Part shown: one piece after another, positions 57 through 53,615 of the stretch | Layout: the number at the start of each line of letters is the position of its first letter | How positions within the stretch are numbered: the stretch's first letter is position 1 | DNA from: Paramacrobiotus metropolitanus | Taxonomy: Eukaryota; Tardigrada; Eutardigrada; Parachela; Macrobiotidae | NCBI RefSeq assembly: GCF_019649055.1 | Contig: NW_026570262.1 | Location: forward strand, 248,001-312,000 | Length of the DNA stretch: 64,000 bases | Direction of reading: 5' to 3' | Program-made: the position numbers and the translations under genes | Notes under the pieces: generated by a model | What the model was told of the DNA's origin: nothing | The model's database searches: none | Seen by the model: the letters and a program-made list of their open reading frames with translations, nothing else

Positions 57-620
57 TGGCTATTGTCACCCCCTTGCACCCCCTTTCGACTATTGTCACC
101 CCCTTTTTTTAAATAAATTAAACACCCCCTTTGACTATTGTCACTCCCTATAACACGGCCTTTAGGCTATTGCCACCACCATTAAATTTATTTTATAATT
201 TCGCCACCAGCGGGTCTTTTTCAATTCTGTTTCTGCCACCACCGGCAGGGAAAGGCGCCAAGCGAAGCTTATTAACACTTAATGCATCGCTTAGATGCGG
301 TCTCATTTTTTTGACATTAAATTTCGCATCTTCAGGATTTTTTTTACTAATGAGTTCCGCAGCAAAAGCGATAGCAAAAAGCCCGCAGTTATGTCCGTCT
401 CTCTGCTGCTGCGCGCGTGGAAAAAAAATTTCGGCGTCTCGGTTAAGTTTGTACAATAGCCAAAAAGGGGGTGACAATAGCCAAAAGGGGGGTGACAATA
501 GCCAAAAGGGGGGTGACAATAGCCAAAAGGGGGTGCAGGGGGGTGACAATAGCCAAAAGGGGGTGCAGGGGGGTGACAATAGTCAAAAGGGGGTGAGGGG
601 GGGTGACAATAGTCGCACCC
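57..620. repeat. Inverted minisatellite blocks enclosing a protease relic
   Basis: Copies of a short unit reading CTATTGTCACCCCC occur at 59-155. The same unit occurs in opposite orientation (GGGGGTGACAATAG) at about 456-618, at least six times. The two blocks face each other across about 300 bp, as expected for an element with repeat-built inverted ends. Long open frames across the right block come from repeat periodicity and are not taken as genes. No target duplication was recognised. Confidence 0.75.
193..450 (-). pseudogene. Ulp1/SENP-like (C48) cysteine protease fragment
   Basis: The minus frame contains QQQRDGHNCGLFAIAF followed about 25 residues later by MRPHL. This matches the C-terminal half of Ulp1/SENP-type SUMO or ubiquitin-like proteases, where a conserved Gln precedes the catalytic Cys of an N/D-C-G-L-F motif and an MR-HL helix follows. 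The catalytic His and Asp that lie upstream in the family are absent; the frame instead runs into the minisatellite. This is only the last 70 or so residues of a domain of about 200. Many eukaryotic DNA transposons carry such proteases, so it is probably a remnant of a mobile element. Confidence 0.6.
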
Positions 621-625
621 TTCAT

Positions 626-1379
626 AAATTGCACATTTTTTTATTTTTTGCTTGTGTATCATTATCGATGGATCTCCACGGCAGAACGGTCTCAATTATT
701 TAGACATCCTTCTCAATTTGTATGGGTTTTCTAACTCTCCATGATAAGGTTCGATCCCGCAAAGAGCCATTATAACACGACGTAATCACATAACGTAGAA
801 GATTAACTTCAGCTACGCAGTGCTTAATGTTTTAATTGCAGCCGGTGTTGTGTTCACTTTACCAGCTAGCCGATCGCACGATTTGTAATTACTACGAGTA
901 GTACTTGTAAAACGATGCCAAGCCGTACGTACCAGATTGCAGTGATGTGTACTTGTTAACTGTATTGCAGTACTTCCGGTGCCGATAAGATATCGCCATT
1001 CCACGAGTTTAAGTTACGAGAACGGACGATAAGCAAATAATGTGACGATGGTTTACCGTTTATGGACGACTGGTTTATGTAGGTTCACCAATTACCCATA
1101 TTATCGCACCCATGCTGTTTGAATACGAGAAATACTTGTCAATAGGGAACACAGTGTACTTGCAACTGTTTCTGTTCACCGCAAGTACTTGCTCACGATG
1201 CGTATCGCGCTTTACTTGCGAGCAGGCTTGCGATTTACCGTATTGTAGCTTGATAATATTTCGAGGAACTGAGCAGTCGAAAATTTGCATAATTTTGTTT
1301 GGTGTGCGACATGCAGCATTTCAAAACGGGAATGAATCGAGTTCGCAATACGGTCAGCGGCAATACGGCAATACGGTCA
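626..1379. other. Duplicated flank, no gene seen
   Basis: No convincing gene. From about 960 the sequence is a diverged copy of 3850-4190; for example CGGACGATAA followed by CAAATAAT occurs in both. It is the upstream part of a tandem duplication unit holding the two glycosylase-like genes. Confidence 0.5.
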
Positions 1380-2270
1380 GCCCTATTGCTACAGACTGGC
1401 GTTTTATCCTTGATAAAAGATATGACGAACAGCGCTGCTTCCTGTCCGATATCATCCTACGGCTGCTGTATGACAAGTACCATCCCCTAACGGGCGGCCC
1501 ACCAGTCCCCAATAGACGGAAATCTTTAGTTGGACGAGTGTCCACTGCACAAATTAAGCGCGGTAATCGTACTACGCAAACCGTTGAATCCACGCCATCC
1601 GTGCTTTCGCAGTACCGGCTACGCACTGGGTGTACAAGGTATCACATTCGCTGACCATCTTTGGAAAAATTATGGTTGTGGTCTTCCCACCATGCAAAAT
1701 TTCTGGAGTTTTTTGCACTTGATGTGACACCAAGTCGAGCAGTTTTTTTTTAAAAGGCAAATAACGCTGCTTCCATGCCCTTTATTTCCTGCCACACAGA
1801 AAACTATCGCCCTGGCATGGAGGTTTCACTTTGCATTAATGCATGAACTGGGAGTGCGGCATCCCGGTTTAGTTGTCTTTCAGTTGTACAATAACGATCT
1901 CCTGCAAAACGCATTCGAATCCTGGAGCAATAGCAACATCAGCTGTATGATTCGACCGCGCTTTATGGATGTAAGACGCCCGGGATCGAAGCACGTTGCG
2001 CGGTTCAATAATGCTAGCGAAGTTGAAGGTTACGTCATTGAGACACTAATTGCATTTAGCCGGTTCAGAAGAAGTATCGGAGCTATGCGGTTGGAATGCC
2101 GAGAAACAGAAGATAGGCTAAAGTTGCCTGTGTCTCTCACATTTGCCAATCTCGAGACGTTTGATGCCGAAAAACTTCTGCTGGCTGTGTTGGAGCGCAC
2201 GACATTGCGACAAATCGAGCAGATTACGACAGTCGCACCGACCTATGTGCGATTCTTGAGGGTTTTCTAG
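1380..2270 (+). pseudogene. Glycosylase-like gene, decayed copy A
   Basis: This is a diverged tandem copy of the gene at 4191-5272. Matching segments lie in different frames: DWRFILDKRYDEQ near 1395, LSAVIVLRKPLNPRHPCF near 1545-1600, YALGVQGITFADHLW near 1620-1665, and LVVFQLYNNDLLQ to the end at 1870-2270. Between about 1727 and 1839 most of the middle segment is missing and a T-rich stretch replaces it. Frame changes plus this deletion make it a pseudogene, although its last 143 codons remain open. The initiating segment is not recognisable. Confidence 0.65.
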
Positions 2271-2280
2271 ACTTTTTCAA

Positions 2281-3146
2281 CGCTGCGTGCCTTCAGTTTA
2301 AAAAGGTCACAATTGCTTGGTGGTCGCTTGGGTGTTGTGTCACTTGTGTGTGACAATGTACATTGGCGGCTCGATGGCAAATCATCTTCAAACTGTGTTT
2401 AATTTACAGTTGAATTAATTTTGCGTTTGCGGACTTGTGTCACTGGGTTAGCCATTTATTATTAGCAAGCCATTTATTTTTTATGACTTCAGTAATGTAA
2501 AATAGATCTGCGCACTGTCTTGAACAACTTGCCTAGGGGTCAGGTGGACGCGGCCTTGAAGGCGGGTAGAATGATGATGTTATCAATCGGTTAGATATTT
2601 ATTCTCTATCCCACTTAATTACTAAACCAGTGTCTTGTTCAGGCAACTTTTCAAGGAAAGTCAGAACTGCAGTTGATGACTACGAAATACATCGTCGAGA
2701 CGGTCAAACACGACGCATTTCGTGGGAAACATTTTTATCGTCGATGCAACTTAAAATACACTCGTACCGCAAGCGAGCAAGACTAAGAACATAATCTTCT
2801 TTTTATGGATGCAAGCGATTAAGAATTCAAAGGAGCGCAAAGCCTGAGAAGAGAGAATTTTGGCATCTTATAAAATAAAAAACTAACCGCACTCTCTGAA
2901 CTCAGTAGGATTTTACTGTATTGCCAAGACAATAATATTAAGGTCAGCATTTGTTTGTAGTATTTTGAAGTTATCGCTGAAAAGCTGCATTTTTTGCCAG
3001 GGCGAAATAGTAACAGTTTAAAAACCATTAACGTCAATTTTCCAACACTTCCTTGTTCCAAACTATACTTTCCACAACGGACCATGAAACAGCTCTAGTA
3101 ACTCAACCTACACAATTAGTAACTCAACCTACACACTGCTTAATTA
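2281..3146. other. Intergenic, no gene seen
   Basis: No supported gene. Two direct copies of GTAACTCAACCTACACA lie just before the fold-back element, at about 3098-3134. Confidence 0.4.
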
Positions 3147-3310
3147 CTGTAGCGGCTCCACCAAGTTATACCACAGAGTTTGTGTACGGGAAGACACTAC
3201 CCAGAGTGTGTGTATTATTTGTGCACGCGATGCATGGGCATACACACGCTGCGCGGGTGCAATTTTCCCGTATACAAACTCTGTGGTATAACTTGGTCGA
3301 GCCGCTACAG
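3147..3310. mobile_element. Short fold-back element (MITE) with TA target duplication
   Basis: Starting with CTGTAGCGGCTC and ending with GAGCCGCTACAG, the two ends are inverted copies over roughly 45 bp with few mismatches. Both ends share the CCAAGTTATACCACAGAG core. TA flanks each side (3145-3146 and 3311-3312). A TA target and short inverted ends fit a non-autonomous Tc1/mariner-type element. No transposase is encoded. Confidence 0.75.
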
Positions 3311-3312
3311 TA

Positions 3313-4190
3313 TATAATTCAGTTTGTGTTGCGTTCACGTTTCTTTGCCTATCGCATAATTCTTTGCGAACTGTTACTGCGCGATTTTATACGACTTAAT
3401 ACGACAAATCTTTCAAAAGATGGTCTACCAGAAGATTCACAGAAACTTCTCCACGAGATTGCGAGGCTGTGTTAGCCGGGAAGTGCTCATAACCGTACAT
3501 CACCCGGCAGTCACATTCTGCACTTGTATACCGCCGAATTGACCTTTACGGACAGGATGGAATGTCGGCCAGAGACAGCACCTCACCGCTGTCCAAGAAC
3601 CACAATTTGGTATATAAGTGAACGAAAGTGTATAGCAGAAGTCCGGGTATCCACCGGTCAGTGGTCGGGCTGGATGCCAGGACCACGGTTCGCTAGTTCG
3701 ACGAGTATACGGTTGCTACCTTGCTGTTATTACTAACCATGGTGAATCACTCACTTTCTTAACACTTGCCGTATGCTGATATACGTATTTGTATTTGTAT
3801 TTTATGGTAAAATACGTCTACTAGGTACAGAGTAGAAGTGCTGATTAGATATCGGCATTCCGCGAGCATATAAGCATTACTTGCACGTGGACATAACCAT
3901 GAACGGACGATAATCAAATAATCTAACGATGGTCAACGGACACAGAGCTGATGTAACGTTTACGATTACCGCATCGATGGTGTTAAGTGCCTCCTACCTA
4001 TTATTACGGAATAGGTTTACAGCCAGAGTATATTTACAGCTAGGGCCGTTTACAGCTATTTTGTTTAACTTATAGCCAGGTTCACGGTGCGTATCATGCT
4101 TAACGTGTGACCAGGCTGGTGCTTTACTTTAATGAAAGAAAAAAGAATATTAGAATTCGAATGTTATTATCATTTTATTCGGTGTGTACT
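3313..4190. other. Intergenic; upstream half of duplication unit B
   Basis: No gene supported. Sequence from about 3850 is homologous to about 960-1300 upstream of copy A, so it is the 5' flank carried with the duplicated glycosylase-like gene. Confidence 0.45.
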
Positions 4191-5272
4191 ATGGCGCAGC
4201 ATTTCACAAAGGAATGGATCCAATCCGTAATTAGCCGTATCGATACAGACTGGCGTTTTATCCTTGAATTAAAATATGACGAACAGCACCACTATCTGTC
4301 CGATATCATCTTACCTCTGCTCTACGACAAATACTATCCCCTCAGTGACGGCAACTGGACCGTTCCCACCAGTCCCAAATGGACGGAAATGTTTAACTGG
4401 ACGAACTGTCCACTGGACAAACTGAGCGCAGTGGTCATACTACGCGAACCACTTCAACCACGACATGCGTGTTTTCACAGTACCGGCTACGCATTAGGTG
4501 TTCAAGGTATCACGCTCGCTTCTAATATCTGGAGTGACTATGGGTATGGTGTTCCAACGGTTCAAAATTTCTTGAAAATACTACACTTGCTGTGGCACCA
4601 AGTGGAGCATTTTATGAACGAAACACACCACGATCCTTCCATGCCACTGGTTTCCTGCAGCGCTGAATATCATCGCACGGGCATGGAGATGTTCTGGAGC
4701 AATGGTTTCGATCCGGGAGATCTTTCGCAGCACGGAATCCTGTGTCTGAATATGGCGTTAACAAAACCGACAGTTACGAATTAGTGTGGGATGGCTTCAC
4801 GCTTCAGCTGCTTCGCGAATTAAGAATTCGGTATCCGGGTTTGGTTGTCTTTCAACTATACAATAACGAGCCCTTGCAGACACTGTTCGAATTCTGGAAT
4901 AACAGCAATATGTACTGTGTTATTCGACCGCGCTTTATGGATTTGGGATGCCCAGGATCGAAGCACGTTTCTTGGTTTAAGGAGGTTGAGATTAGAGATT
5001 ATGTGATGGAGATTCTAAATAAATTTAGGGGACTCAGTAGGAGGATTGAAGCTATGCGGCAAGAACATCGAGAAAGAGAAGACCGGCTCCAGATGCCGGT
5101 GCCTTTCACATTGTCAAATCTTGAAGCGTTTCATGCCGAAAAAATGCAGTTGGCTATATCCGAACGCATGACAACACAACACATCGAGTGGATAACAAAA
5201 GCCGAGCTTAATTATGTGCGATCCTTAATGGTTTTATTAGCTTTCTTTCAGCGTTGTATGCCTGTAGCCTGA
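4191..5272 (+). pseudogene. Uracil-DNA-glycosylase-like protein, copy B (one frame break)
   Basis: The start is ATG at 4191 (MAQHFTKEWIQ). Residue order recalls family 1 uracil-DNA glycosylases: a VVILREPLQPRHACF stretch where family members have their water-activating loop; QHGILCLNMALT like the Q-G-V-L-L-L-N segment; WDGFTLQLLREL like the G-W-E-x-F-T helix; and GLVVFQLYNN like the V-F-L-L-W-G strand. The usual catalytic Asp-Pro-Tyr and His-Pro-Ser motifs are replaced (EPL and RPRFMD), so glycosylase activity is unlikely. About 80 charged, coiled-coil-prone residues follow. The frame breaks near 4755, where the first frame stops at 4784 and the second runs to 5272; the change fits loss of one base. 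It is either a pseudogene or a frameshifted gene. The family assignment is a remote similarity judged by eye. Confidence 0.5.
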
Positions 5273-5413
5273 AAAGGTCACAGTTCCTTGATTGCTTCAT
5301 TGGTGGTTTTAATTCTGGTTGTGGGTTACCGATATCATGCGATATGCAAACAAGTTCTAACTTTACTGGAAACTATTTGCAGAAATCCGCATCGGGGTAA
5401 TTCGTAACCTGGA

Positions 5414-5419
5414 AATAAA
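5414..5419 (+). terminator. Candidate poly(A) signal for copy B
   Basis: AATAAA lies 142 bp after the stop of the glycosylase-like copy B. This is only a motif match. Confidence 0.3.
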
Positions 5420-5816
5420 AATAGCAAACAAAAGCGGTAAACGCTATACACAGATTGACTATTAAGCGATGCTCAAGCGACACTCATTGAGCTTAAACAT
5501 GTGATAAATCAGGAAAAGCTTCGTTAGCATAAAAGGTTTCGGTGCAAGTGGTGGCTGCATAGATATTGACAGTCTAGATTTGCTGGTAAATATGTAGCTA
5601 CTGTAATTAACTAATTGGCCACAACCGATAATCAGACTAAAAGGGAAATTCAAATTAAATTGTACAAGGTTTTAAAATGTTCTTACGCAATTGTTCAGTG
5701 TGAACACTGTATATTCTAGGCACCACAACGGCAAATAACATAGATTATTAGGATATTCAACTTCTCTTAAAGTTGAATTAATTTTGCGGCTGACTGGAGT
5801 CGTTGGGTTGAGAGGC

Positions 5817-6080
5817 AATTTAAGGAAGCGACCCGGTACATGGTACCAAACTGGTGTACATGCACGAACGCCCACTCCCTTACACTTTTTTGCACTGCTA
5901 TAAGACATTCTCTAGCCAAAGAGTTGCGTGAAACCGTTTGTGCGCGCATCAGTTATCGTTGCGGTTTTCGCGACAGAAGTGAAAGTCTCACCACGAATTC
6001 TTTTTTGTCTTCTGGCTGCAGATGAAAAGTTACAAGCTAATCAGGTACAAACTCAATCGCGGCAAAAGTTCATCTGGCCG
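5817..6080. repeat. Decayed single-arm copy of the TTAA fold-back family
   Basis: TTTAAGGAAGCGACCCGGTA and the following GCATGGTACCAAA-like and GTGTACATGCACGAA segments align with the left arms of the elements at 18120 and 40994. GAAACCGTTTGTGCGCGCA further in also matches. No matching inverted right arm was found, so this copy has lost one arm. The rest of 5420-6776 is AT-rich and shows no gene. Confidence 0.55.
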
Positions 6081-6116
6081 GCTCTTCGATCTGCCGATTA
6101 TCAAAACATACAGTTA

Positions 6117-6295
6117 TGAAATTACATTGGCAAATGTCGCGAACAGTTTCTCGTCTGGATCTTTTGCGTGGTTTCATCGTGCCATGTATGTGCTGAAATG
6201 ATGTAATGCGTGATGTTGTGCTCCATCAACGTTCATGTGAATATAATTAAGGAAAAGACGTTTTTGTGACCTTTGATATTAATTAGTAGCTTCTA
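6117..6295. repeat. First half of a segment duplicated at 12480-12660
   Basis: The string AAATGTCGCGAACA, then TCTGGATCTTT and GTTTCATCGTGCC, and the tail GTGACCTTTGATATTAATTA, occur in the same order at 12505-12662. The second half of the same segment is at 7815-8060 here but directly adjoins in the other copy. Confidence 0.7.
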
Positions 6296-6776
6296 CACTT
6301 CCGCTAAGTTATAATATACGGTACATGTGATATATTATAAATATTATAAATAAAATAAAATTTTTTAAGTGCCAGTGAGCCAAAAACCGTTCAGATGGCG
6401 TTTTTTCTGTCTGATTTTCAAAGAATCCGTTTCCCCGCAGTTTTTTACATCGGAAAACGGTTTTTGCGTAATTTTAAAAATTATGCTTCATAGTGATAAA
6501 ATTGGCGGGTTTGGAAAAATTGGCGGGTTCGAAATGATACATACATACTTCAAGTACATGTTCTGACAGATTATGCCGTAAATAAGTAGAGCCATAACAT
6601 TCGTCTTAAAATTAACAAACTTATTAATGAAATTATAAAATAAGCTCATTGTATAATTTTTAATTTACTTCGAAAAACATCCGCGCCGCATCAAAATTGA
6701 CACTGCACGTAATTAAGTAAAACGGTTACACGTACTTAAGACAAAATGCGCAACAAGTAGTTGTATCGAAAAATTC

Positions 6777-7216
6777 TTAAAGATATCGGAACTGCGCACC
6801 CACCGCATTGAAAGTAATGGCTTTCTCGCCACTAAACTTAACCAGAACACTAATGCCCAGTGAATGCTGAAGCTCCTTATTAACCGTCCAGGTGTTGGTG
6901 CTGCCGGCGGGAGTGGTCTGCGAATGGTACTGCTTCAGATTCAGGTAATCGTGCGAAGCTATCTTCGTGCGCCCATCCCAGACATGGACGCTCATTATAG
7001 TGCCCCCGTGCAGCTGGTACAAGAGGGTGATTTTATCTATGAAGGCATCTTTGCCATCGCGTTGCAGCGGCACAGGAATCGGCGCGTGGAACCAGCGTTC
7101 TTGCAGATTCGAACTGGTCAAGCGAAAGCGTGTACCCCATCCGTACACGACGGTTTCGAAGAAGCTGGCAATGTCTGGTACAAAACTGGTGCCGTGTAGA
7201 TAATGGGCATTGGTGG
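6777..7216 (-). CDS. Small bacterial-like domain protein (possibly DUF6623-like), last exon
   Basis: An open frame runs from a splice-acceptor-like CTTTGTAG (ends at 7217) to the stop at 6777, about 145 residues. It begins ATNAHYLHGTSF and includes YGWGTRFRL, WFHAPIPVP, VHVWDGRTKIA and LGISVLVKF. This pattern (N-A-x-x-x-H-G near the start, W-F-H-x-P-I-P, V-H-V-x-D-G, L-G-I-S-V) matches my memory of a bacterial single-domain beta-rich family, possibly DUF6623; the name is uncertain. In bacteria the first Ala would directly follow Met. Here a TAG sits in that place, so either an upstream intron and start exon exist (none found) or the start codon is lost. Function unknown. Horizontal acquisition is possible. 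Confidence 0.5.
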
Positions 7217-7814
7217 CCTACAAAGCGTGACAGTCGAATTAGCAATATTTGGGCACTGCTGCAAGGTGGAATAGTGTGCTGTACCAACACAAATATAAAA
7301 TCTGAGAGTAAATATGTGACCTTTCCCTCTACAGTAAAATATGTGACCTTTCCGTTTACATGACCGTACTGTGACTAACGCACGAACGTAATTAATAGCA
7401 TACGTATAATACAGTCCTACCGCTTCTCCGTTCCCTGCACAAGCTAAAACAGTTAGCGCTAACAGAATCGGGTATATTATTGAAATGTATCCAACACAGT
7501 TTAATATGGAGGAAGTAACTACAAAGCAGCGAGGCTAAGTACAGAAGTACAAAAATAAATTCCAGAGGCTAAATTGCAATGGAAAACAGAAATACAGCTT
7601 CCTTAAATACTTGCCTTGCGCGTACGAGGTATTTCCCATGGCGTATTGCAGTTATTGCTTTTTCTCTTCCATATCTGTCAACGATATCTATCTATCCGGT
7701 TGCGATAAGGTGCTTTCAAGCTGGGAAAGAGTGGAATGATTGTAACAGACTGCACTGCTGAAAGTTGATTACGATTTTGCCAAAACCTAGCTATCGTTTT
7801 TTGTAATCATATTA

Positions 7815-8060
7815 CCCAGTTTTTGGCTGATTACATGGTGGCGTGATGGCGCACCATGTTTCGCCGATCATTCGGGCTAGCAGATACATATCACTTATCA
7901 CTGTAGGCCTGCAGCAAACCCATGCAGAAAAACAGGAAGTTTGCCATTTATCCTTGATAGGAAGTCTCTGTCGATAACAACGCACGCGTCTTATCATGAT
8001 CATGACGCTAATTGTCGAAAATGCCGTTATGTGTACGTTATAACTGCATTTTATAAGCAC
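7815..8060. repeat. Second half of the segment duplicated at 12720-12960
   Basis: CATTCGGGCTAGCA, then CCATGCAGAAAA-CAGGAAGT and TTATCATGATC-TGACG, are shared with 12760-12905. The rest of 7217-8396 shows no supported gene, apart from two short copies of AAATATGTGACCTTTCC at about 7311-7352. Confidence 0.65.
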
Positions 8061-8396
8061 GTTTAACCAGGTTTGGAACTCGTAAAAGTATTAGGTATAC
8101 TTACTCTGCAGTAGATTTGCAAACTGATATTTATTTGATCCAAGGAATGCGGTACACTGTCAAATTACTTCACTATTATCCGAACAAAAAATCGAAGCTC
8201 ACGGACAACACGCACAATATAATAGAAATTTCACGGAACCGCGGAAGAGTACCCAAATACTGTAACTTCATGCCAGGACCGCGTTAACTACAATGCCGGC
8301 CTGTTGCAACCCGGTTTAAAATAATTTGAATTTTGCTGTTGACGATGCATACGTTGGTATTTCTAGATTGAATTTCAAATTACGCACCATTCGATT

Positions 8397-9024
8397 CTAC
8401 CAACAGAAAGCCCTGCTCAAACCGTTCGAAGATATGATCCATGAATGTCTGACTACCATCATTAATGTCAACGTCACCGAAAACATTTGGATAGACTTTT
8501 GTTCGGTGCGCTTTTGACTTCCAGCTACCCGGACATTAGAAAAGCCCCCGTCAGTAAAACGGGGGCTTTTCATATGACTGGTAATATCGTGGACCATATA
8601 ATTCCTCAGAACCAGACGCCGACAAATGGGAATGAGTCGGGTTAAACTGTCACACTTCCAAGCGCGATCCACAGCATAATATGGATGCGGTTCCGGCAAG
8701 TCGTGCACGTCAGGGCAGTTGGTACTTGGTAATACCACCGTATGAGCGACCATCTCCGATCAGGATATAGTCCAGCTGAATCCCTTTGACCGACAGAACC
8801 GTTGCTAATACTTTTGTGACGGCAGGCACGTTTGAGGACAGCAGACAATCGATCAGAGTAAGGCTTCTGGTGTCGGTGGTTACGGCCTGATATACGGCCC
8901 AGCTGAAGTCATAAACGTTGTGGCAGGAAAGCCAGGAGTTGGATAAATTCGTCGGCTTCAATATCGAGCTATCGATGGCAATGTGTCGGCTGGTGTGGTG
9001 ATCGGATAAAATCTGATGCCACAA
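8397..9024 (-). pseudogene. Decayed unrecognised gene fragment
   Basis: Two overlapping minus frames read as one protein interrupted once. The first (9024-8710) ends IGDGRSYGG and the second (8753-8397) continues NCPDVHDLPEPHPYYAVDR. Leucine-rich stretches such as SLTLIDCLL and LIPICRRLVL suggest a leucine-rich or F-box-associated protein, but I do not recognise the family. The frame break near 8720 makes it a probable pseudogene. No splice sites were found that would join the frames. Confidence 0.3.
8539..8571. other. Perfect 13-bp GC-rich hairpin
   Basis: GAAAAGCCCCCGT pairs perfectly with ACGGGGGCTTTTC across a 7-nt loop. The form is that of a bidirectional bacterial intrinsic terminator, although the surroundings are animal DNA. 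It follows the stop of a short plus-strand frame by 21 bp, with no evidence of a functional link. Confidence 0.7.
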
Positions 9025-9582
9025 TGCACAGACCCTAAAGAGGACACCATGCGATGTTGCCCGTGTGAGTATGAGTTTGAAAATGCAACTGAATTTTAAA
9101 TCTTATTGAGCATATTAAGAAAATTTCAGGGAAATCCGTTTTGTACTATGGCCTGCCATTTGTTTTACAGCCGTCAAGTACTCGTACACATACGAGGGTT
9201 GGTAGTTATGTTCTGTCGTTCGTATATTACCTTACCTTTTTGCTTTAGCTTGAGTGTGTAGGTCCAGGCAGAAGAGAACATCAACCATAACCGAAGACAC
9301 CACATCACCGATCCATCCGTCATGATCTACAATTCAACAGAGCACTTATCTAACAGAAAGTTGTACAGATATTAGCAGCATGGCTGTGACTTGTGGACCG
9401 TGGATTTTTCTCATTCTACGAATTCGATAGCGAGCCATTTGGAGTGACCCACAAGCAGACTACAGCCGTAAAACATGGATGGTGGTGATTCGCTAACGGT
9501 ATGGTGTCCCAGCGTATCTAGCCTTGCGCTATTTTGCAGCCGCGTGGGTGGCAGAATAGCCATGGTTTATATTTTACCGCAC

Positions 9583-9617
9583 CATTCATTCATTCATTCA
9601 TTCATTCATTCATTCAT
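9583..9617. repeat. (CATT)n microsatellite
   Basis: About eight uninterrupted CATT units. The flanking 9025-10003 holds no recognisable gene; 9780-9870 is A-rich with short AAGAAAA-type repeats. Confidence 0.9.
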
Positions 9618-10003
9618 GTATCAGGAGCAGACAACCCGGTAAACGGGACTTCAAAGTCCGGTCGGTAAAGAAAACAGCTAACTATTACCAAGGAGATTAT
9701 TAAAACAGATCAACAGTTTTCCAGTACCATACGTTACCAGACCTAAGAACTTTAGAAATATTCGTAATCTCTGTTTTTCTCATTTCAATAAGAAAATGAA
9801 GAGAAGTTAAGAATAACCTAAGAATAATCTAGAAAACCTAAAATAAATTAGAAAAGTTAAAGAGTTGAGAAAAAAATTAAGCTAAGAAAACTAAAATCCT
9901 CGAAAATCAGACTGCGGCAAATAAGGCTATTTTGGCGCGCAGTGTGTGGCTAAATAGTAAAAGGCTGTTTTGCCGACCATAGTGCGGTAAAATAGCTACT
10001 CGA

Positions 10004-10852
10004 TTAAATTAATGTCAGCTTACCGAGAACTAGTCCTTGCTGTGCGAAATTCCTCATAAAATCATAAAACTGTGGCGCATCCGAAGGAGGGTAGAACCTG
10101 GCAAAGGCCTGTGTAAGAGCATGGACATCCCATTCGGCCCGCATGGTATCTTGACGGTCATGGAGCTGGGCGCAAATAAAACTGAGGCAATCCCCAGTAA
10201 CATTAACGTAGATTCGGTATGCGACACACATGTTACAACAGACAGATCCTCCGGGTTTACTCGCCGACGGGGCTTGTCCGGCTTTATATAAGCAGTCACG
10301 CAAGGCCAACGCATCCAGCTTCCTAATCTTGCTAGCATTCCCATACGGCACGGTGAATTTGCGAAAGTACAGTCCGGTGGTTTGGTTGTGCAGCGGTGGC
10401 GCATCGAAGGCGGGAGCAACAGCGACGGCAATCTGAAACAGGTGGACCGGAAAAGGCTGTCGCGCATTACCGTCATCGAGCTGAACGAAGAACAAACCCA
10501 TTTGATTCGTAGATGTAACGAGTCGAGCCGGACGAAAAACGTGTGGTCCATTCTGTGAATTGCGTAGTGCCACTTGCACGGCAAAACTGCCTTTTGTTGC
10601 GACGTATTTGTCCAATGAGTCCCGCAGATTATCACTTAAAAATCGTTGAGCGCGGACGTAGCGTGATTGTATCCAGTCGGCGGGAGCCGTTGTGGAAGCG
10701 AAATTCACAAGCATGAGGTCCTCATCGATATCCTGCACGTATCCGAGCCACCGTTCCCCGTTCTCGCGTTGAACCATCACCGTATTCCCGAAATTTATTT
10801 CGCGCAGCCCGCATGCAAGACTCCGAAAATGATACGGTGTAACGGTGTCCAT
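10004..10852 (-). CDS. Uncharacterised 282-residue protein, possible Tudor/Agenet-like N-terminus
   Basis: A single uninterrupted frame starts at ATG 10852 (MDTVTPYHF), the first ATG in a frame that stays open upstream only from a TTG. Residues 20-70 (FGNTVMVQ, RWLGYVQDIDEDLMLVNF, then DWIQSRYVRAQ) alternate short strands and tryptophans in the manner of Tudor or Agenet-like barrels. The middle carries CCNMC, and the C-terminal third is mostly helical (WDVHALTQAFARFYPP). There is no signal peptide or membrane segment, so it is probably intracellular. Length, intact frame and codon regularity support a real gene. I recall similar proteins in tardigrades but cannot confirm it. Function unknown. 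Confidence 0.6.
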   Translation of the reverse strand: MDTVTPYHFRSLACGLREINFGNTVMVQRENGERWLGYVQDIDEDLMLVNFASTTAPADWIQSRYVRAQRFLSDNLRDSLDKYVATKGSFAVQVALRNSQNGPHVFRPARLVTSTNQMGLFFVQLDDGNARQPFPVHLFQIAVAVAPAFDAPPLHNQTTGLYFRKFTVPYGNASKIRKLDALALRDCLYKAGQAPSASKPGGSVCCNMCVAYRIYVNVTGDCLSFICAQLHDRQDTMRAEWDVHALTQAFARFYPPSDAPQFYDFMRNFAQQGLVLGKLTLI

Positions 10853-12480
10853 GGCGGCGAAAGTTTTCAAGTCAATAAGAAACCCGACAGGCAGCAGTGA
10901 TGAGGTGTTGATCAGGCGCGTTGGTCTTTCACTCTTTCTTTCGGCTTGAAATTCAAGCCTCAGGGCGCAGATATCTTGTAAATGAATCAAATATTGCCTT
11001 ACTTAAAAGTTAAAATGGACTCGAAAGAGCTACTTCCTATCCCCATATGCCGCGATACGAAAGACAAGGATCTAAATGGGACGACATAAATCACTTGTGC
11101 GAAAGATTTCCAGACCAACAATATGCATTTCGTACTGAGTGCTATCCATACAAGTAATCCAGATGATTCTGCACTTTCACTTGCTAGTGGCTAGTGGCTA
11201 CACAAAACACAGGTAACTTTCATCACAGAGCGCATGCCTTCACGAACACGAACGAACCTAAACGACGAGTAAACGTAAGCTCTTGTGTGACGCATAGTCA
11301 TGTATAGACTATAGAGTGTTGCTCGTTGGGCCGTTGGCGTAAATAGGTGTTTATGCAGTGTAGAATTTTAATCTCTCAATATGTATACAGCGAGCTTCGC
11401 TCAATGATACGTACCAATCAAATGAAGAATTTGTCCCATTTTACATGAGAAGGGACTGTGCACAACACACTCATAGCATTACCACGCATAATCTCTAAGC
11501 TTAAACCATGAAACAAAAAACAAGTGGAGCGACTCTCGCCCGTCCTCATGAACAATTTTTTCCCAATCTCCTTTAACGAAACAATGCCGGCCTCACACCA
11601 AGTGCCAAATGCAGTTGTTGTGAGCTATCTTCACGCAGCTATCTGTGTCTAAAGACGTCCGTTTCTCTGCTTATTTCTCAGTGGTATTCTGAACGAAGTT
11701 GTGATTGAGCGATTTCATTAAGCATCGTGTGCGGCTGTAGTAAAGATCACTGATGGGATCATGGGATCCGACGGCTTTCTCTGTTGTGTATGGGATACAT
11801 GTTATAAGTACTGTATTGTACGTCATACAATACACATGTCTTGCGGTATTTACAAGTAAACCAATAAAGCGGTATCAATTATTACTTATTAGGATCCAGA
11901 CATCACAGAAATAATGTCTACCGTAGGGTTCGCATTGTTTCCGTTTTCTTTCCTTTCCATTATGATGCTTAAAACATAAGAAAACCGTTCCTGATCGGCA
12001 GACAAACCAGCTTGTTGTAGTGGTCTAAGCGCGAGGGTACGTTTTTCAGCTGCAGTACTGGATTGCCGATTGCGATTATTGTGCTTCATTCGGCAAATCT
12101 CGTGCTTTTAAAAGCTAATGTTTGAAGCTAATGTTTGCTAACTTGCTTACTTACTAGAATTCGTACTACGGAGACCGCATTCGAGGGCTGAGTGGTGAGC
12201 CTACTTATTAGGTTTCGTGACCTTAGTGACCTCACTTAATTTGGTTTCATCAGACTGGTAGCTCTTTCAAAGCGCACCAATTTACATTATCCTGAAACCG
12301 TTAGTAAATTCAAGATCGTAAATAATTTTGACTATGGCCATGGCTAACGAACACAGACGTTGCAAAAGTTCAATATTACCTGGTATTTACTGTTGACAAC
12401 CCGAATACCGATGGTTGTGGAATATATTGTGGTGCACACTACACAAACCTTAGCACTATTAAATCGTCGGGTATCAAACC
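10853..12480. other. Intergenic, no firm gene
   Basis: A 66-codon minus frame (12089-11889, starting MKHNNRNRQ) has an ATG but no family likeness and is not claimed as a gene. AT-rich sequence otherwise. Confidence 0.35.
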
Positions 12481-25213: not shown

Positions 25214-25933
25214 ATGAACAATCAGTCTACTCCGGAAGCTGGCATCTGGTTGAATGCCCTACCCTCGGCACACATCGGCAACCTTCTGGACGACGATACG
25301 GTCAAGATATCAGTAGGTCTAAGACTGGGCGTAACCATCTGTGAGCCTCATCCATGTGCTAAGTGCAATAAACCTGTTGACGTGTATGGCCACCACGGCT
25401 TATCATGTTCTTTTTCTGCTGGGAGACACGCACGCCACGGCGGCCTGAATAGCATTGTGTGCAGATCGTTAGTTTCGGCAGGGATCCCAGCAAGGCTGGA
25501 GCCCCGTGGAACGTCACACACTTCGGCTCGCCGCCCCGATGGATGCACCACATTTGCCTGGAAACGCGGGATGTGCCTTGCATGGGATGTGACCTGCGTG
25601 GACATTGTTGCTTTGTCCCACCGGAAATCCACGTCGGTCACCGCAGGTTCCGCTGCCGCGCAAGCCGAGGACAAGAAAGTGCGTCTGTATGTGTATCTGA
25701 ATGGCAGATACATTTTCGTACCGCTAGCGTTCGAAACACTTGGCCCATGGGGAAAGTCAGCTACCATATTGGTAAAAGAAATCGGCAAGCGACTACAACT
25801 TCACACAGGTGAACCTCGCTCCCATGAATTCCTTCGTCAACGGCTGTCGCTGGAGATTCAGCGAGGTAACGCCGCTTCCGTACTCGGAACAATGGAGGGA
25901 GCGATATCGTTAAATGAGATTTTGTTACTGTGA
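25214..25933 (+). pseudogene. C-terminal fragment of RLE-like non-LTR retrotransposon
   Basis: The 239-codon frame matches only the C-terminus of the reverse transcriptase ORF at 50192-52651. It has CAKCNKPVDVYGHHGLSC (zinc-binding C-x2-C...H-H...C), a following Arg-rich GRHARHGG, ARRPDGCTT, LAWDVTCVD, PLAFETLGPWG and FLRQRLSLEIQRGNAASVLG. RPDG and WDVT recall the PD-(D/E)xK-like nuclease of R2-type elements. The reverse transcriptase domain is absent (5' truncation), so the copy cannot move. AATAAA lies at 25982-25987. Confidence 0.8.
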
Positions 25934-29699: not shown

Positions 29700-29800
29700 T
29701 CGGTCAATGAATTTCTTCGTCAGCGACTTTCGCTGGAGATACAGCAAGGAAACGCGGCATCATTGGCTGGTACAGTGGAAGGATGTTGCAATGTTAGCTT
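29700..29800 (+). pseudogene. Tiny 3' relic of the RLE-like retrotransposon
   Basis: The frame NEFLRQRLSLEIQQGNAAS matches the last 35 or so codons of the elements at 25214-25933 and 50192-52651. Nothing else of the element remains. Confidence 0.75.
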
Positions 29801-30092
29801 TGGTTTGTTTTGTCTCAGACTGCATCGTTTTAAAATGGATAAAGCACAAACAACTACAGTTTGTAAGACTGTCGTGTGACGCAGGTGTATTTATTGCACG
29901 CCTTCTATTCATTTAATTATAAATTTCATTTCTGAACTGTGGACCGACTGGCCAATTTCTACATGTTTTTGTCATACATTGTTCATAAAAAAATCTTCGC
30001 AACCGCTTCTTTAATTAATGCATACCGATACACAAATTTAAATTTACTACAAGAAAGAGCACAAAAAAATTGTACATTCTGGAGATGGCAAA

Positions 30093-48559: not shown

Positions 48560-49452
48560 GTCATACACATAATGTCTATTTTTGGCAACGAATCCTTAAT
48601 CGATTCCACAGCGATACAATGTACTCGGTCAGCTTCGTCAGGCTGGCCAACACAAACAGCGGATCCAGTAGGACTTGCAACGAATACAGCAGAGTCACCC
48701 ATGGGCCGATAATTCTTCTCTGCGCTGCTGGTATGCCGACCCACATCTGGATGTCGTAGTAAATCATACCGGGAAACCAACAAACCAGGGCGGACAGCGC
48801 AAACAAACTCATGATAACAAAAGGCCGCGTTTTGGCACGTTGGGAGTGTGCAAACGCCGAGGTAGGATGTCATGAGGGATTCTGCGCCAGCGCTCTTCGT
48901 CTGCGCACCAGCTTCCACACTACGCACAGATATGACACAGGGACCAAGACTTTCGGCAGGTCAAATCCTATAATACCGGCGATTGTGTAGTATAGATGCT
49001 GTGCTGCGTCATTCAACCCGCATCCATATTCCAACGGAAGACGGTAATAAAGGTCATCTAGGATAATCATGGGCACATATGTACAGGGTATGCGCATACA
49101 CCGCAATAATCAAAGCACAACGACATTGCCACCAGCACTGTATGCCGATTCCGGTAAGAAATCGGTCACATAATGGCCCAAGCACGATTGACCACGATGA
49201 GAAGATGGATGTGCAGGATGGTCGGGGTGCCGATCCATGTGGAGTAGTTCAGCAGAATACAGCTGGGACGATAAACATTCTGGCTGTACCACAAACTCAG
49301 CAGGCTACGTGGGTCCAGCGCCGTGAAGATGATGTTGCTGCCGAGGAGGACAATTATGTAAATGTCAAATGGTGCCGGTCGTCCTTTCAGCAGTATGGAC
49401 ATCACAAAACCGTTAAGCAAAAAGGCAGCGAAGGTTGTGGCTATTATACCGG
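48560..49452 (-). pseudogene. GPCR copy 8, main part, split by a 4.09-kb insertion
   Basis: TM1 end to TM3 (LLGSNIIFTALDPR, ILHIHLLIVVNRAWAIM) is in the frame 49420-49166. TM4 end to TM5 (DLPKVLVPVSYLCVVWKL) is in another frame, 49106-48870, which ends at a TGA where intact copies read Gly-His. TM6-TM7 and an intact C-terminus (FPGMIYYDIQ, LDPLFVLASLTKL) lie at 48812-48576. The N-terminal coding piece lies 4.1 kb away at 53549-53615 beyond the inserted element. Confidence 0.9.
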
Positions 49453-50191
49453 CAGCCCGAATCGGCCCGCGCTGAGGCGCTGAGTCTGAGTCTGACCACT
49501 AAAGGGCTGAGTCTGACTGATAAAGGACTGAGTCTGACTACTAAAAGGCTGAGTCTGACTAGTAAAAGGCTGAGTCCGGAAAGGAGTGCTGGGGTGAAAC
49601 CTGTGAGATACTCCACCGGAAATATCGGCAGAAGTCTTCACGACGTCCCGTAATTCGTCCAACATTTATCAAACTACACTGCACCAGAATTAGTCTGACA
49701 ACGATCAACGCCGTAAATACGGGGCGTTAAAAACAGCCGCAATTATAATACAAGCTATTGTCACTTTTAGCGAGACTTTTTAAAAACGACGTAAAAAGAA
49801 AAATACATAGCATTCTTTCTACACAAATAAAGCGAGGTGAGTACATTATAATGAGATAAACTGCTAAGGTGCCGCATGCGTGATGCAATTATGTGACGGA
49901 AAGCCAACATGCGAGAGGCGGTGAGAGACTGGTTGTTTATATTAAATTTCGATTACCGAGTCATATTCCAGTGTTCGCTCATTTCTAATCAGGTGGCTGT
50001 TGCCAATTAAGTCGTTGCAGCCAAGTAGTCTTGCGGATGGTGGGACACATACATGTACGGGTAGCTCGTATTATCCGGCATTTTTATTGTGCTGTGCACC
50101 CCATCAATAGTAAACATACGAATCATTGTAATATAGATAAGATAACCAAAACCACAGCAAAGCTGCCATGAAAAACAACATCGGGTACAAA

Positions 50192-52651
50192 TTATTCCCG
50201 ATCAGCCAATCTAAAAGCTAAAAAAACATCTTCGCTGTCTCTCATGTCACTAAATGTTCCGAGGACAGACACTGCACTTCCACGTTGGATCTCAATACTG
50301 ATTCTCTGACGCAAAAACTCTCCCGACCGAGGGTTACCACTACATTCGCAAATCTTTCTGGACAATTCCTTGAAGAATTTCTTTGTGCGCGGTCCGAAAG
50401 TTCCCGTGGTTTCAAATGCCAAGGGTTGCACTATGTATCGATCCGCCAGTCCATCGTATTTCTCAAGCTTTCGATTCTCTCTTATTTCCGCTGCACTTCC
50501 TGGAACACGTGAGGTCTGGCCAATGTAGGTTTGGGCAAACGTGTCGGCAACAGTAACGTCCCAAACCATCGGTTTCCCATTGCGCCAAGGAAAAGCGGTT
50601 ACACCGTCTGGCCGTTTGCCATCTCCTCTATCCAGTCCCGGTGGCTCAAGCGTCGACGGCACTCTGGCAGAATTTAGGGCCCGTTTTGTCGCGGCGTTCA
50701 ACACGGCATGAGTACCGTGTCTTCCTTTGGCCAGCTTACATACAAGTCCATGATGACCGAGACTGTCTACTGTGACTCCGCAGCGACATACATGTTGCTG
50801 GCATACTGGGGCTCCCAATCGTCGAGCCACGGCTATGCGTAAATGGGCATCTTCCAATAAGTTACCAAAAATTGTGACTGGTAATGCAGCAAGCCATGCC
50901 CGCGATTCCGATGAGGATGCAGCCAACAAACGAGCTGAGGTAATTACGTCGGCATTCTCCATCATGCGGGTCGCAGTCCTGGTGTGCTGCACTGCTGTCC
51001 AAGCAGACTGGAACTGGCGGTTTTCTATCCGGGGAGCTTCCGTCGAATAGTGTTCCGTCCATAATTCGGTGAGGCGCGTGCATTTTTCTGAGATTGCGTC
51101 ACTGCCTATTATATTGCGTACGACGTTGGCCACTCCATGCAGCGACGAGGCATAAGCAGCGAGCGCCACATCTGCTGCTTTTACCATTCCCAATCCCCCA
51201 AACTTCGTTGGTAGCGTAGCTTGCTCCCATACCGTTTCGGTCATTGCAACGTTCGTTAGCTGTTCCGCCTTGGTCCGAATCATTTCGTCGAATTTATGCA
51301 GCGCATCCGGGAACTGCCAACACTCAGCTGTCCTAAGGAGGTATAACAACTTCGGCAGCGACAAGCAATTTTTCAACAAAAATAGTGCTTGATGTGTAGG
51401 CAATATACCGAGCTGGTCGGCCAGCACTTGTGCTTGACCGACCTTCTTCATCAACGCGCTCTCGACCGCTTCCGCCAATAATGGAGATCCCAACAGCTCC
51501 AGCCTTTCCGCTGTGACAACGTGTGTATCCGGTGCCACATCCATGAACATTCGGACCACTTCCGCACGCTCGCAGGCTGTTCCTCCGTCTACGTATAGTT
51601 CGCATTTCTTCGTGTTTAGCTCCAAGCCTATTTCAGCGGCCGCTCCGCGGAGTTCCAAAAAGGCGTCGCGAACTGTCGGCGGGCTACCTGCACTCACTCC
51701 GTCGTCTAGATACCACAGATTAATGATCGTTTTTAACAGTGAACAAGGCGCTAGAGTTAGTAAACCATATAACATAGGAGCACTGGGATCGCCCTGCTGC
51801 ACACCACTGTCTGACGAAAGGGTAACTCCAGTGCTAGGGGAAACGCAGAACAACGTTGTTGCTTCTCCATACGCCGAACAAAAGAACCTGTAGTACTCGG
51901 GTATGCGCTCCTTCACTATTTTCAAAATCTTGTCTCGTCTGACGGTGTTGAAAGCGTTAGAAAAGTCAAACTTCAGAAAGGCTCGTGCTTCAGTCGATGG
52001 CGTCTGTAGAAACTCTCTTGCACAATGCACCACCGTTTCCGCTCCTTTCTTCGTCCCAAACCCAAACTGTACTGGGCGGAAATAGTCTCCCATATCTGCT
52101 GACAAACGGAAACACACAATCTTGGCGATTAAACGACGTAGCGTACAACCAGAGGCTATAGGGCGAATGCCTCCATCGGGCTTTAAGAACGGGAAGAGAT
52201 TAGCTCCGAAAAACACATCTCTGGCTTCTGCGGGAATTTCGTGATGTAGTAAATGGTTAGCAAACTTCACCAAGGCGTCCAACAGCTTTCGACGGGTCTC
52301 TCCTTGCGCAGACAACAAGTCTTTGAGGTGATCAGCGCGTAGACCATCCGGTCCTGGACAGGTACCTACATCAAACGACTCAAGGGCAGCTATCAGTTCT
52401 CTGGAAGTTACATCAGCAGCGACCGCATCCACATTACCCACCGGTGCATCCAGGTCAGCGGGCCGACCTGGATGTTTTTCCTTTAACATCGCAATGACTT
52501 CATCGGTTAATGGTGCGATGGTCTCTTGTGATACCAAGGCGTTCAACGCGCGTCCAATGGCACCACACTCCAGATGCGCATTAACCCGTTTCGCTTTAGC
52601 TGCTGTTATATAAGATAAGATAAGATAATATCGGTACATCTGTTTAGACAT
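50192..52651 (-). CDS. Reverse transcriptase with C-terminal restriction-like endonuclease
   Basis: First ATG in frame is 52651 (MSKQMYRYYL); the frame is uninterrupted for 819 codons. N-terminal: GTCPGPDGLRADHLKD. Reverse transcriptase: IRPIASGCTLRRLIAK, FLKFDFSNAFNTVRRD, SGVQQGDPSAPMLYGL and catalytic YLDDG. C-terminal: CQQHVCRCGVTVDSLGHHG (zinc-binding), RHGTHAVLN, GKRPDGVTAFPW and VWDVTVADT, resembling the PD-(D/E)xK-like nuclease of R2-type elements. It ends FLRQRISIEIQRGSAVSVLG, shared with the fragments at 25214 and 29700. Such proteins are common in cnidarians and molluscs as non-LTR elements. It lacks the N-terminal DNA-binding fingers expected of R2 relatives, so it may be 5'-truncated. 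An 18-bp GATAA microsatellite lies at the start. Confidence 0.85.
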   Translation of the reverse strand: MSKQMYRYYLILSYITAAKAKRVNAHLECGAIGRALNALVSQETIAPLTDEVIAMLKEKHPGRPADLDAPVGNVDAVAADVTSRELIAALESFDVGTCPGPDGLRADHLKDLLSAQGETRRKLLDALVKFANHLLHHEIPAEARDVFFGANLFPFLKPDGGIRPIASGCTLRRLIAKIVCFRLSADMGDYFRPVQFGFGTKKGAETVVHCAREFLQTPSTEARAFLKFDFSNAFNTVRRDKILKIVKERIPEYYRFFCSAYGEATTLFCVSPSTGVTLSSDSGVQQGDPSAPMLYGLLTLAPCSLLKTIINLWYLDDGVSAGSPPTVRDAFLELRGAAAEIGLELNTKKCELYVDGGTACERAEVVRMFMDVAPDTHVVTAERLELLGSPLLAEAVESALMKKVGQAQVLADQLGILPTHQALFLLKNCLSLPKLLYLLRTAECWQFPDALHKFDEMIRTKAEQLTNVAMTETVWEQATLPTKFGGLGMVKAADVALAAYASSLHGVANVVRNIIGSDAISEKCTRLTELWTEHYSTEAPRIENRQFQSAWTAVQHTRTATRMMENADVITSARLLAASSSESRAWLAALPVTIFGNLLEDAHLRIAVARRLGAPVCQQHVCRCGVTVDSLGHHGLVCKLAKGRHGTHAVLNAATKRALNSARVPSTLEPPGLDRGDGKRPDGVTAFPWRNGKPMVWDVTVADTFAQTYIGQTSRVPGSAAEIRENRKLEKYDGLADRYIVQPLAFETTGTFGPRTKKFFKELSRKICECSGNPRSGEFLRQRISIEIQRGSAVSVLGTFSDMRDSEDVFLAFRLADRE

Positions 52652-53099
52652 TAACTCATAGGGGAGACATACGGACCAATTCAGGGCTAACGTTAAGCTC
52701 CACAAGTGGCGCGCAACGGCACACTATTTACTACGATCTTTAGGCATTTGGCATGGCTGATGCTTGCCAAATAACTACCTACGTAAACTATAAACTGTCG
52801 ATATAAATTATAAGTATTAACTTTGTCCTTTATGATTATCTTAAATGTTGAGAAGAGCAAAATTTGCCATTGTGGTCGAAGTGTACTGGCAGAAATTTTA
52901 AGCTAAAATTTTGCGCTAAATACAGAGTACGTGCGATCTACAGTATATGGTTACCACGGAAATTACGGGAGAAGCTTGTAGTACATCAAAGCGCTAATTT
53001 GCAGTAAATGAAACAATATAGTTCGTAATATGAATTAGATTTCCGCATACGACAGAGCTGCCGAGCGAACAAAAATTTGGTTTTAAAAGAAAATATGCT

Positions 53100-53340
53100 C
53101 ACTTATTGATAAAATCCGCGCGGAGCGCGGAAAATTTTATGTTTTTGGAGCTCGTATGCTGCATTTTTACGTGCTTCTAGCCTGAAAAACCGGTTAAAAT
53201 ATCAACTTTTTCTGTTTTTATTTGTCTTCTTGGTCCCATCCCATCTTTCAACAATCCCAGCCCATCTCACCTCATCTGCAGCTCTTTCCCATCTCATCCT
53301 CATTTTCACCTAAAAGATGAGATGGGCTGGGAAAAATAGG
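53100..53340. repeat. Hairpins in the element's right part
   Basis: CCAGCCCATCTCACCTCATC (about 53268) is the inverse of GATGAGATGGGCTGG (about 53317), forming a long hairpin. A smaller one (AAAATCCGCGC / GCGCGGAAAATTTT) is at about 53109-53138. From 52652 to 53500 no gene is recognised. Confidence 0.6.
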
Positions 53341-53548
53341 GAAAATTTTCACCTCACCCAAAAGATGGGCAAAGTCTGCTGCGTATACGTTTATCAATCG
53401 AAAATTAATATCAAAGTCATCAAACTAACGACAGCGATCATATATATTGGTGCTTTAGTCATATTCTTGATTCATTCATAATAATATTTAAGCACTGTAA
53501 TGCTAATTAAATTAGTCTGACTCAGACTCAGCGCCTCAGCGCGGGCCG

Positions 53549-53615
53549 TTAACCGGCTGTTGGAATTCCAGCGTGGCATTTGTCGAAGCGTTAGAAATAT
53601 TTTGAAAAATCATGA
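53549..53615 (-). pseudogene. N-terminal piece of GPCR copy 8
   Basis: The minus strand reads MIFQNISNASTNATLEFQQPV, matching the start of intact copies (FFNASANATLEVQRS). It is separated from the rest of copy 8 by the 4.09-kb element. Confidence 0.85.

What the first reader, a model, noticed from the sequence alone, without database searches (positions are those of the whole stretch)
49463..53548. 34-bp inverted ends bracket a reverse transcriptase ORF inside a receptor gene
Non-LTR elements do not have terminal inverted repeats, yet the only large ORF between these GC-rich inverted ends is a reverse transcriptase with a nuclease-like C-terminus. Either the retroelement jumped into a non-autonomous DNA element, or the two travel as a unit. 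The receptor coding sequence lies directly outside both ends, so the insertion edges are well fixed.
Basis: partly seen in the sequence, partly recalled or inferred. Interest (0 to 1): 0.75.

Follow-up and report, generated by a model that had tools for sequence, protein, structure and literature searches.

The report
Retroelement nested inside a DNA transposon
A shortened copy of an ordinary reverse-transcriptase element landed inside an older DNA transposon sitting in a dead receptor gene; the two do not travel together, so this is common nested repeat DNA.

Summary
In detail: 34-nt inverted arms enclose an RT ORF inside a receptor pseudogene. The arms belong to a family with 47 ends in the genome, 17 facing pairs 0.65-30 kb apart. 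14 of 17 pairs carry a target duplication (exactly 9 bp in 9). Of 15 pairs read whole, only the window's holds this RT subfamily; one other (L008) holds a distant RT fragment. The RT element (about 50142-52605, minus) is a 5'-truncated copy of an abundant, dispersed non-LTR family whose full frame is about 970 codons (C2H2-like finger, RT, CCHC-like knuckle, restriction-like-endonuclease motifs). TAATAT stands on both sides of it, and three other loci (C32, C36, C52) show the site unoccupied, with a 6-nt overlap in C32 and C36. It is a nested insertion, not a composite element. Still open: the window copy of the outer element lacks a 9-bp duplication, and the receptor is about 14 nt short there; the outer family's transposase was not found. 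By duplication length and tandem-repeat ends the outer family resembles Foldback/Mutator-like elements. New member of known kinds; low interest.

The parts
49464..53547 (.). outer inverted-end (Foldback-like) element, non-autonomous, 4084 nt
   Evidence: edges by comparison with other copies
49463..49496 (+). left inverted arm
   Evidence: 47 family ends
53515..53548 (-). right inverted arm
49486..49576 (+). 21-bp tandem units inside the left end, 4.3 copies
   Evidence: same kind of units in other copies
49582..50134 (+). left interior shared with the C32 member (84%)
50129..50134 (+). TAATAT, left copy of the RT element's 6-bp target duplication
   Evidence: 6-nt overlap of the left and right matches in C32 and C36
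50142..52605 (-). 5'-truncated RLE-type non-LTR retrotransposon (3' edge uncertain by a few nt)
   Evidence: limits of homology to other copies
50192..52605 (-). RT coding part with RT, CCHC-like knuckle and endonuclease motifs
52606..52625 (+). AGATA-type repeats between RT 5' edge and right duplication; a shorter run (from 50135) lies at the other edge
   Evidence: sequence; origin not decided
52626..52631 (+). TAATAT, right copy of the duplication
52678..53039 (.). stretch with dispersed ~70% identical copies elsewhere
53040..53380 (.). ~340-bp dispersed repeat nested in the outer element
   Evidence: 39 further places of 40 scored, 91 candidates
49169..49463 (-). receptor (GPCR-like) pseudogene, part after the insertion
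53548..53613 (-). receptor pseudogene, first 22 codons

Best explanation
Nested mobile elements. A non-autonomous DNA element of a Foldback-like family with 9-bp target duplications lies in the start of one member of a tandem receptor array. Later an RLE-type non-LTR retrotransposon was inserted into it with 5' truncation and a 6-bp duplication (TAATAT). A ~340-bp dispersed repeat is nested in it as well. Shown: the family of ends, the RT family, the truncation, the TAATAT copies and the unoccupied sites. Inferred: target-primed reverse transcription as the mechanism; mobilisation of the outer family by a transposase acting in trans; the order relative to the 340-bp repeat and to the death of the receptor.
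For: C32 member: 84% identical over 49582-50134, then straight on into sequence matching 52626-52671 (91%, 46 nt), the two matches overlapping by 6 nt; C36 the same with 36 nt (89%) and 53 nt (77%), also 6 nt overlap; C52 reads through the same GTAATATCGGTACA, with a BLAST match only to the right side (77%); C32, C36 and C52 also match each other across the site. None of the 14 other whole-read pairs has this RT subfamily. RT copies begin at many different query positions, and no shared 3' flank was seen by eye in 14 and 20 other copies. RT-family fragments are common: 7 protein matches in 203 kb of fetched sequence, 4 of them elsewhere in this window.
Against: The outer copy has no 9-bp duplication (1 of 9 bases) and about 14 receptor nt are missing, so it may not be one simple insertion. 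The right half beyond 52678 matches no outer member examined and looks like a patchwork of other repeats. The short right-hand piece 52626-52678 also occurs at loci not fetched (C203, C15, C94, C56, C31), so it may be an older repeat rather than outer-family backbone.
Confidence: 0.96

Rival explanations
1. The ends and the RT form one composite element that moves as a unit.
For: RT is the only large ORF between the ends; a second pair (L008) also holds an RT-family fragment, and RT-family fragments lie within 80 bp outside the right ends of L001 and L007.
Against: Unoccupied sites; the L008 fragment is only 42-44% identical; none of the other 14 whole-read pairs has this subfamily; RT-family fragments are common in this neighbourhood.
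Confidence: 0.02
2. The two arms come from two different insertions or were brought together by recombination or a deletion next to one end, so the outer 'element' is a hybrid; the RT is still a later insertion.
For: No 9-bp duplication, receptor about 14 nt short, left end with 4.3 tandem units against a short right end, right interior without match in other members. L009 and C80 also lack a duplication.
Against: The arms are 33 of 34 paired and lie against receptor sequence from the same gene; a single insertion with target deletion would look the same.
Confidence: 0.45
3. The outer family is autonomous through a transposase it carries elsewhere in the genome (C7 or C9 type).
For: C7 and C9 copies contain transposase-like ORFs.
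Against: Those ORFs lie inside separately bounded nested elements: C7 2716-10053 with its own ~290-bp ends, and C9 447-4916 with its own 119-bp ends.
Confidence: 0.05

Closest known systems
Foldback / Mutator-like elements, e.g. Tm1 of root-knot nematodes (PMC3169594; passages read)
   Same: composite inverted ends with tandem repeats of variable number, 9-bp target duplications, non-autonomous copies of variable size, nested insertions reported
   Different: different end sequence and repeat unit (21 bp here, about 14 bp in Tm1); no transposase found here; spans up to 30 kb between ends here
RLE-type (R2-like) non-LTR retrotransposons (PMC5678591, passages; PMC7650587, passages)
   Same: single-ORF order: N-terminal finger, RT, CCHC knuckle, PD...WDVT endonuclease motif, RH and KX2KY motifs present in the window copy; 5' truncation; best PDB matches are R2 proteins, E 1.1e-6
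   Different: dispersed rather than at a fixed target; knuckle spacing CX1C in the window copy against CX2-3C in the paper (CX2C in L085 and L086); LINE-1 ORF2p matches almost as well (E 6e-5); clade not tested by a tree

Membership tests
Foldback / Mutator-like element | 9-bp (8-10) target duplication | tested here: met
   exact 9 bp in 9 of 17 pairs, 8 of 9 in 3, imperfect by eye in 2, none in 3; not met by the window copy itself (1 of 9)
Foldback / Mutator-like element | inverted ends with tandem repeats | tested here: met
   21-bp units and the same kind of units in most other ends
Foldback / Mutator-like element | Mutator-type transposase in an autonomous member | tested here: inconclusive
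   none in the 15 pairs read except on separately bounded nested elements; ~30-kb pairs not read inside
RLE-type non-LTR retrotransposon | non-LTR-type reverse transcriptase | tested here: met
   RVT_1; PDB matches R2 and LINE-1 ORF2p
RLE-type non-LTR retrotransposon | C-terminal CCHC knuckle and restriction-like endonuclease | tested here: inconclusive
   motifs conserved in the alignment and fit PMC5678591 except the first knuckle spacing, but no Pfam or PDB match covers this part and no fold was predicted
[quoted passage not shown]
   truncation and 6-bp duplication seen; the mechanism itself is inferred
R2 clade | 28S rDNA target | tested here: not met
   no shared 3' flank in 34 other copies viewed by eye (14, 20); not searched against rDNA
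Composite RT-TIR element | RT regularly enclosed by the ends | tested here: not met
   1 of 15 whole-read pairs, plus one distant fragment

The most novel reading that the evidence does not exclude
The GGCCC-ended family is a Foldback-like lineage moved by a so far unidentified transposase, not one of the known Mutator-type enzymes, and keeps its target duplications at spans up to about 30 kb.
Probability: 0.08. Interest if true: 0.4.

Novelty: new member of a known kind. Interest (0 to 1): 0.13.

Why it matters
An apparent exception to the rule that non-LTR elements lack inverted ends is resolved by unoccupied sites. The dispersed RLE-type family and the Foldback-like family are useful entries for a repeat library of this genome; nothing further is changed by it.

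Tried and rejected
Composite element: rejected by unoccupied sites and the contents of the 14 other whole-read pairs. C7 as autonomous parent: first entertained because of DDE/SWIM-like exons (that motif reading is by eye and recalled, Pfam gave no family for the four exons); dropped when copies on C57 and C32 showed that C7 2716-10053 is a separate element with ~290-bp ends, flanked by what I read by eye as a 9-bp duplication. C9 as autonomous parent: its THAP, DDE_Tnp_4, YqaJ and SWIM ORFs lie between own 119-bp ends. Target preference of the RT: no shared 3' flank seen. Link between RT and outer ends through the RT fragments beside L001 and L007: not pursued, since 7 RT-family protein matches turned up in 203 kb of fetched sequence (8 places counting L007, seen only at DNA level), 4 of them elsewhere in this window; that sequence is no random sample, so this is a rough background only. 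No structure prediction, fold search or tree was run. Not read inside: the C19:791-821 kb and C59:209-238 kb pairs; of the 13 unpaired ends, four were read for 2.5-6 kb and nine for about 400 bp.

Full report
What was checked. The window is G000:C42:248001-312000 of a 170-Mb, 533-contig assembly; its organism is not given and I do not name it. The 34-nt arms are as described, with the RT frame on the minus strand between them.

The ends. A 22-nt core with up to 3 mismatches finds 47 ends against 0 for the reversed pattern. I pair them, by position, into 17 facing pairs (0.65-30 kb) and 13 unpaired ends. Fourteen other pairs were read whole, and the two ~30-kb pairs only at their ends. Copies start at GGCCC[GA]CGCTGA[A/G]GCGCTGAG (one of them GGCCCGCGCTC), and most continue with 21-bp tandem units. 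Target duplications: exact 9 bp in 9 of 17 (L002, L003, L004, L006, L007, L008, C7, C36, C9); 8 of 9 in 3 (L001, L005, C59); imperfect in 2, read by eye (C52 with 7 bp; C19:791 kb with a one-base gap; at fixed positions the script gave 2 and 5 of 9); none in 3 (window, L009, C80). L003 scored 1 of 9 until its start was set to the outer GGCCC. C80 is atypical: its arms run on as a perfect inverted repeat for at least 195 bp outward.

The RT element. The last 559 nt match 40 scored places of 189 first-look candidates, the closest 97% (C235) and 95% (C122), beginning at many different query positions; that query was cut at 50142, so it says nothing on the 3' edge, which rests on L024 and is uncertain by a few nt. 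At protein level 54 places were scored of 3369 first-look candidates; by my count 26 of the 54 rows show an open frame of 860 codons or more and no stop. Open frames of 975 and 968 codons (L016, L017) begin with a C2H2-like finger; the window copy lacks about 170 codons at the front. Homology with L016, L017 and L067 ends at window 52605; the two closest copies, L065 and L066, gave no match in that stretch and do not inform the boundary. RT motifs and the endonuclease motifs (RH, RPDG...WDVT, KX2KY) are present in the window copy. The knuckle reads CX1CX8HX4C, against CX2-3CX7-8HX4C in PMC5678591 (passages). Pfam and PDB cover only the RT part, so the endonuclease label rests on motifs.

The nesting. 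The C32 member (L036) is 84% identical to the window over 49582-50134 and goes straight on into sequence matching 52626-52671 (91%, 46 nt). C36 matches 50099-50134 (89%) and 52626-52678 (77%). In both, the two matches overlap by 6 nt, and TAATAT stands on both sides of the RT in the window. C52 matches 52626-52678 (77%) and reads through the same GTAATATCGGTACA; its left side is aligned but gave no BLAST match of its own. C32, C36 and C52 match each other across the site (77-83%). At both RT junctions lie AGATA-type repeats; tail of the element or microsatellite of the target cannot be told apart. The 46-53-nt right piece also occurs at other loci not fetched, so it may be an older repeat; C32 carries it next to the family end and the shared left interior, which is why the argument stands.

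Other contents. Among the 15 pairs read, identified foreign elements are: window (RT; ~340-bp repeat); L008 (RT-family fragment, 44% to the window RT); C7 (7.3-kb element with own ends); C9 (THAP / DDE_Tnp_4 / YqaJ / SWIM element with own ends; recalled as ISL2EU-like, no call names it); C52 (RT plus integrase SAM-like domain; recalled as DIRS-like). RT-family fragments also lie just outside L001 and L007. In 203 kb of fetched sequence, not a random sample, 7 RT-family protein matches appear, 4 of them elsewhere in the window. The RT is therefore nothing special to these ends.

The receptor. Three open paralogues (343, 346 and 373 codons stop to stop) and three fragments lie in the window. Two paralogues read ...NATLEVQRSAN-TSSVAVPTP-GIIA; the window copy reads ...NATLEFQQPVN, element, IRAA-GIIA, which is 13 nt where they have 27. 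With no 9-bp duplication, either the insertion removed about 14 nt, or a later event at one end did, or two insertions are involved, or the gene was already shorter; not decided.

Verdict. An ordinary nested insertion. Literature: one search on Foldback/Mutator terms and one on RLE elements, with passages of three papers read. I did not search for these exact families in print and claim nothing about their absence there.

Noticed in passing
window 16492-49498 (minus): Tandem array of GPCR-like genes: open frames at 20196-19078, 23951-22914 and 34721-33693, with fragments near 16.6, 30.6 and 42.1 kb and the pseudogene at 49.2-53.6 kb.
   Followed up: partly
window 8353-8493, 11454-11609, 25223-25930, 29706-29810: Four more fragments of the same broad RT family; the one at 25223-25930 is 90% identical to L086 over 236 aa.
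   Followed up: partly
L012+L013 (C7) 2716-10053; similar on C57 and C32: 7.3-kb element with ~290-bp ends holding tandem repeats, apparently 9-bp duplications (by eye), and DDE/SWIM-like exons that Pfam does not recognise.
   Followed up: partly
L068 (C9) 447-4916: Element with 119-bp inverted ends and THAP, DDE_Tnp_4, YqaJ and SWIM ORFs, nested in a GGCCC-ended pair with an exact 9-bp duplication.
   Followed up: partly
L010/L011 (C80:493121-507688): The GGCCC ends sit inside a longer perfect inverted repeat (at least 195 bp outward); inverted duplication or assembly effect not decided.
   Followed up: no
window 53040-53380: ~340-bp dispersed repeat, 39 further places of 40 scored, 80-95% identical; class not determined.
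   Followed up: no
L074/L075 (C59:208.8-237.8 kb): Facing ends 29 kb apart with 8 of 9 duplication bases matching: a very large element or heavy nesting; inside not read.
   Followed up: no
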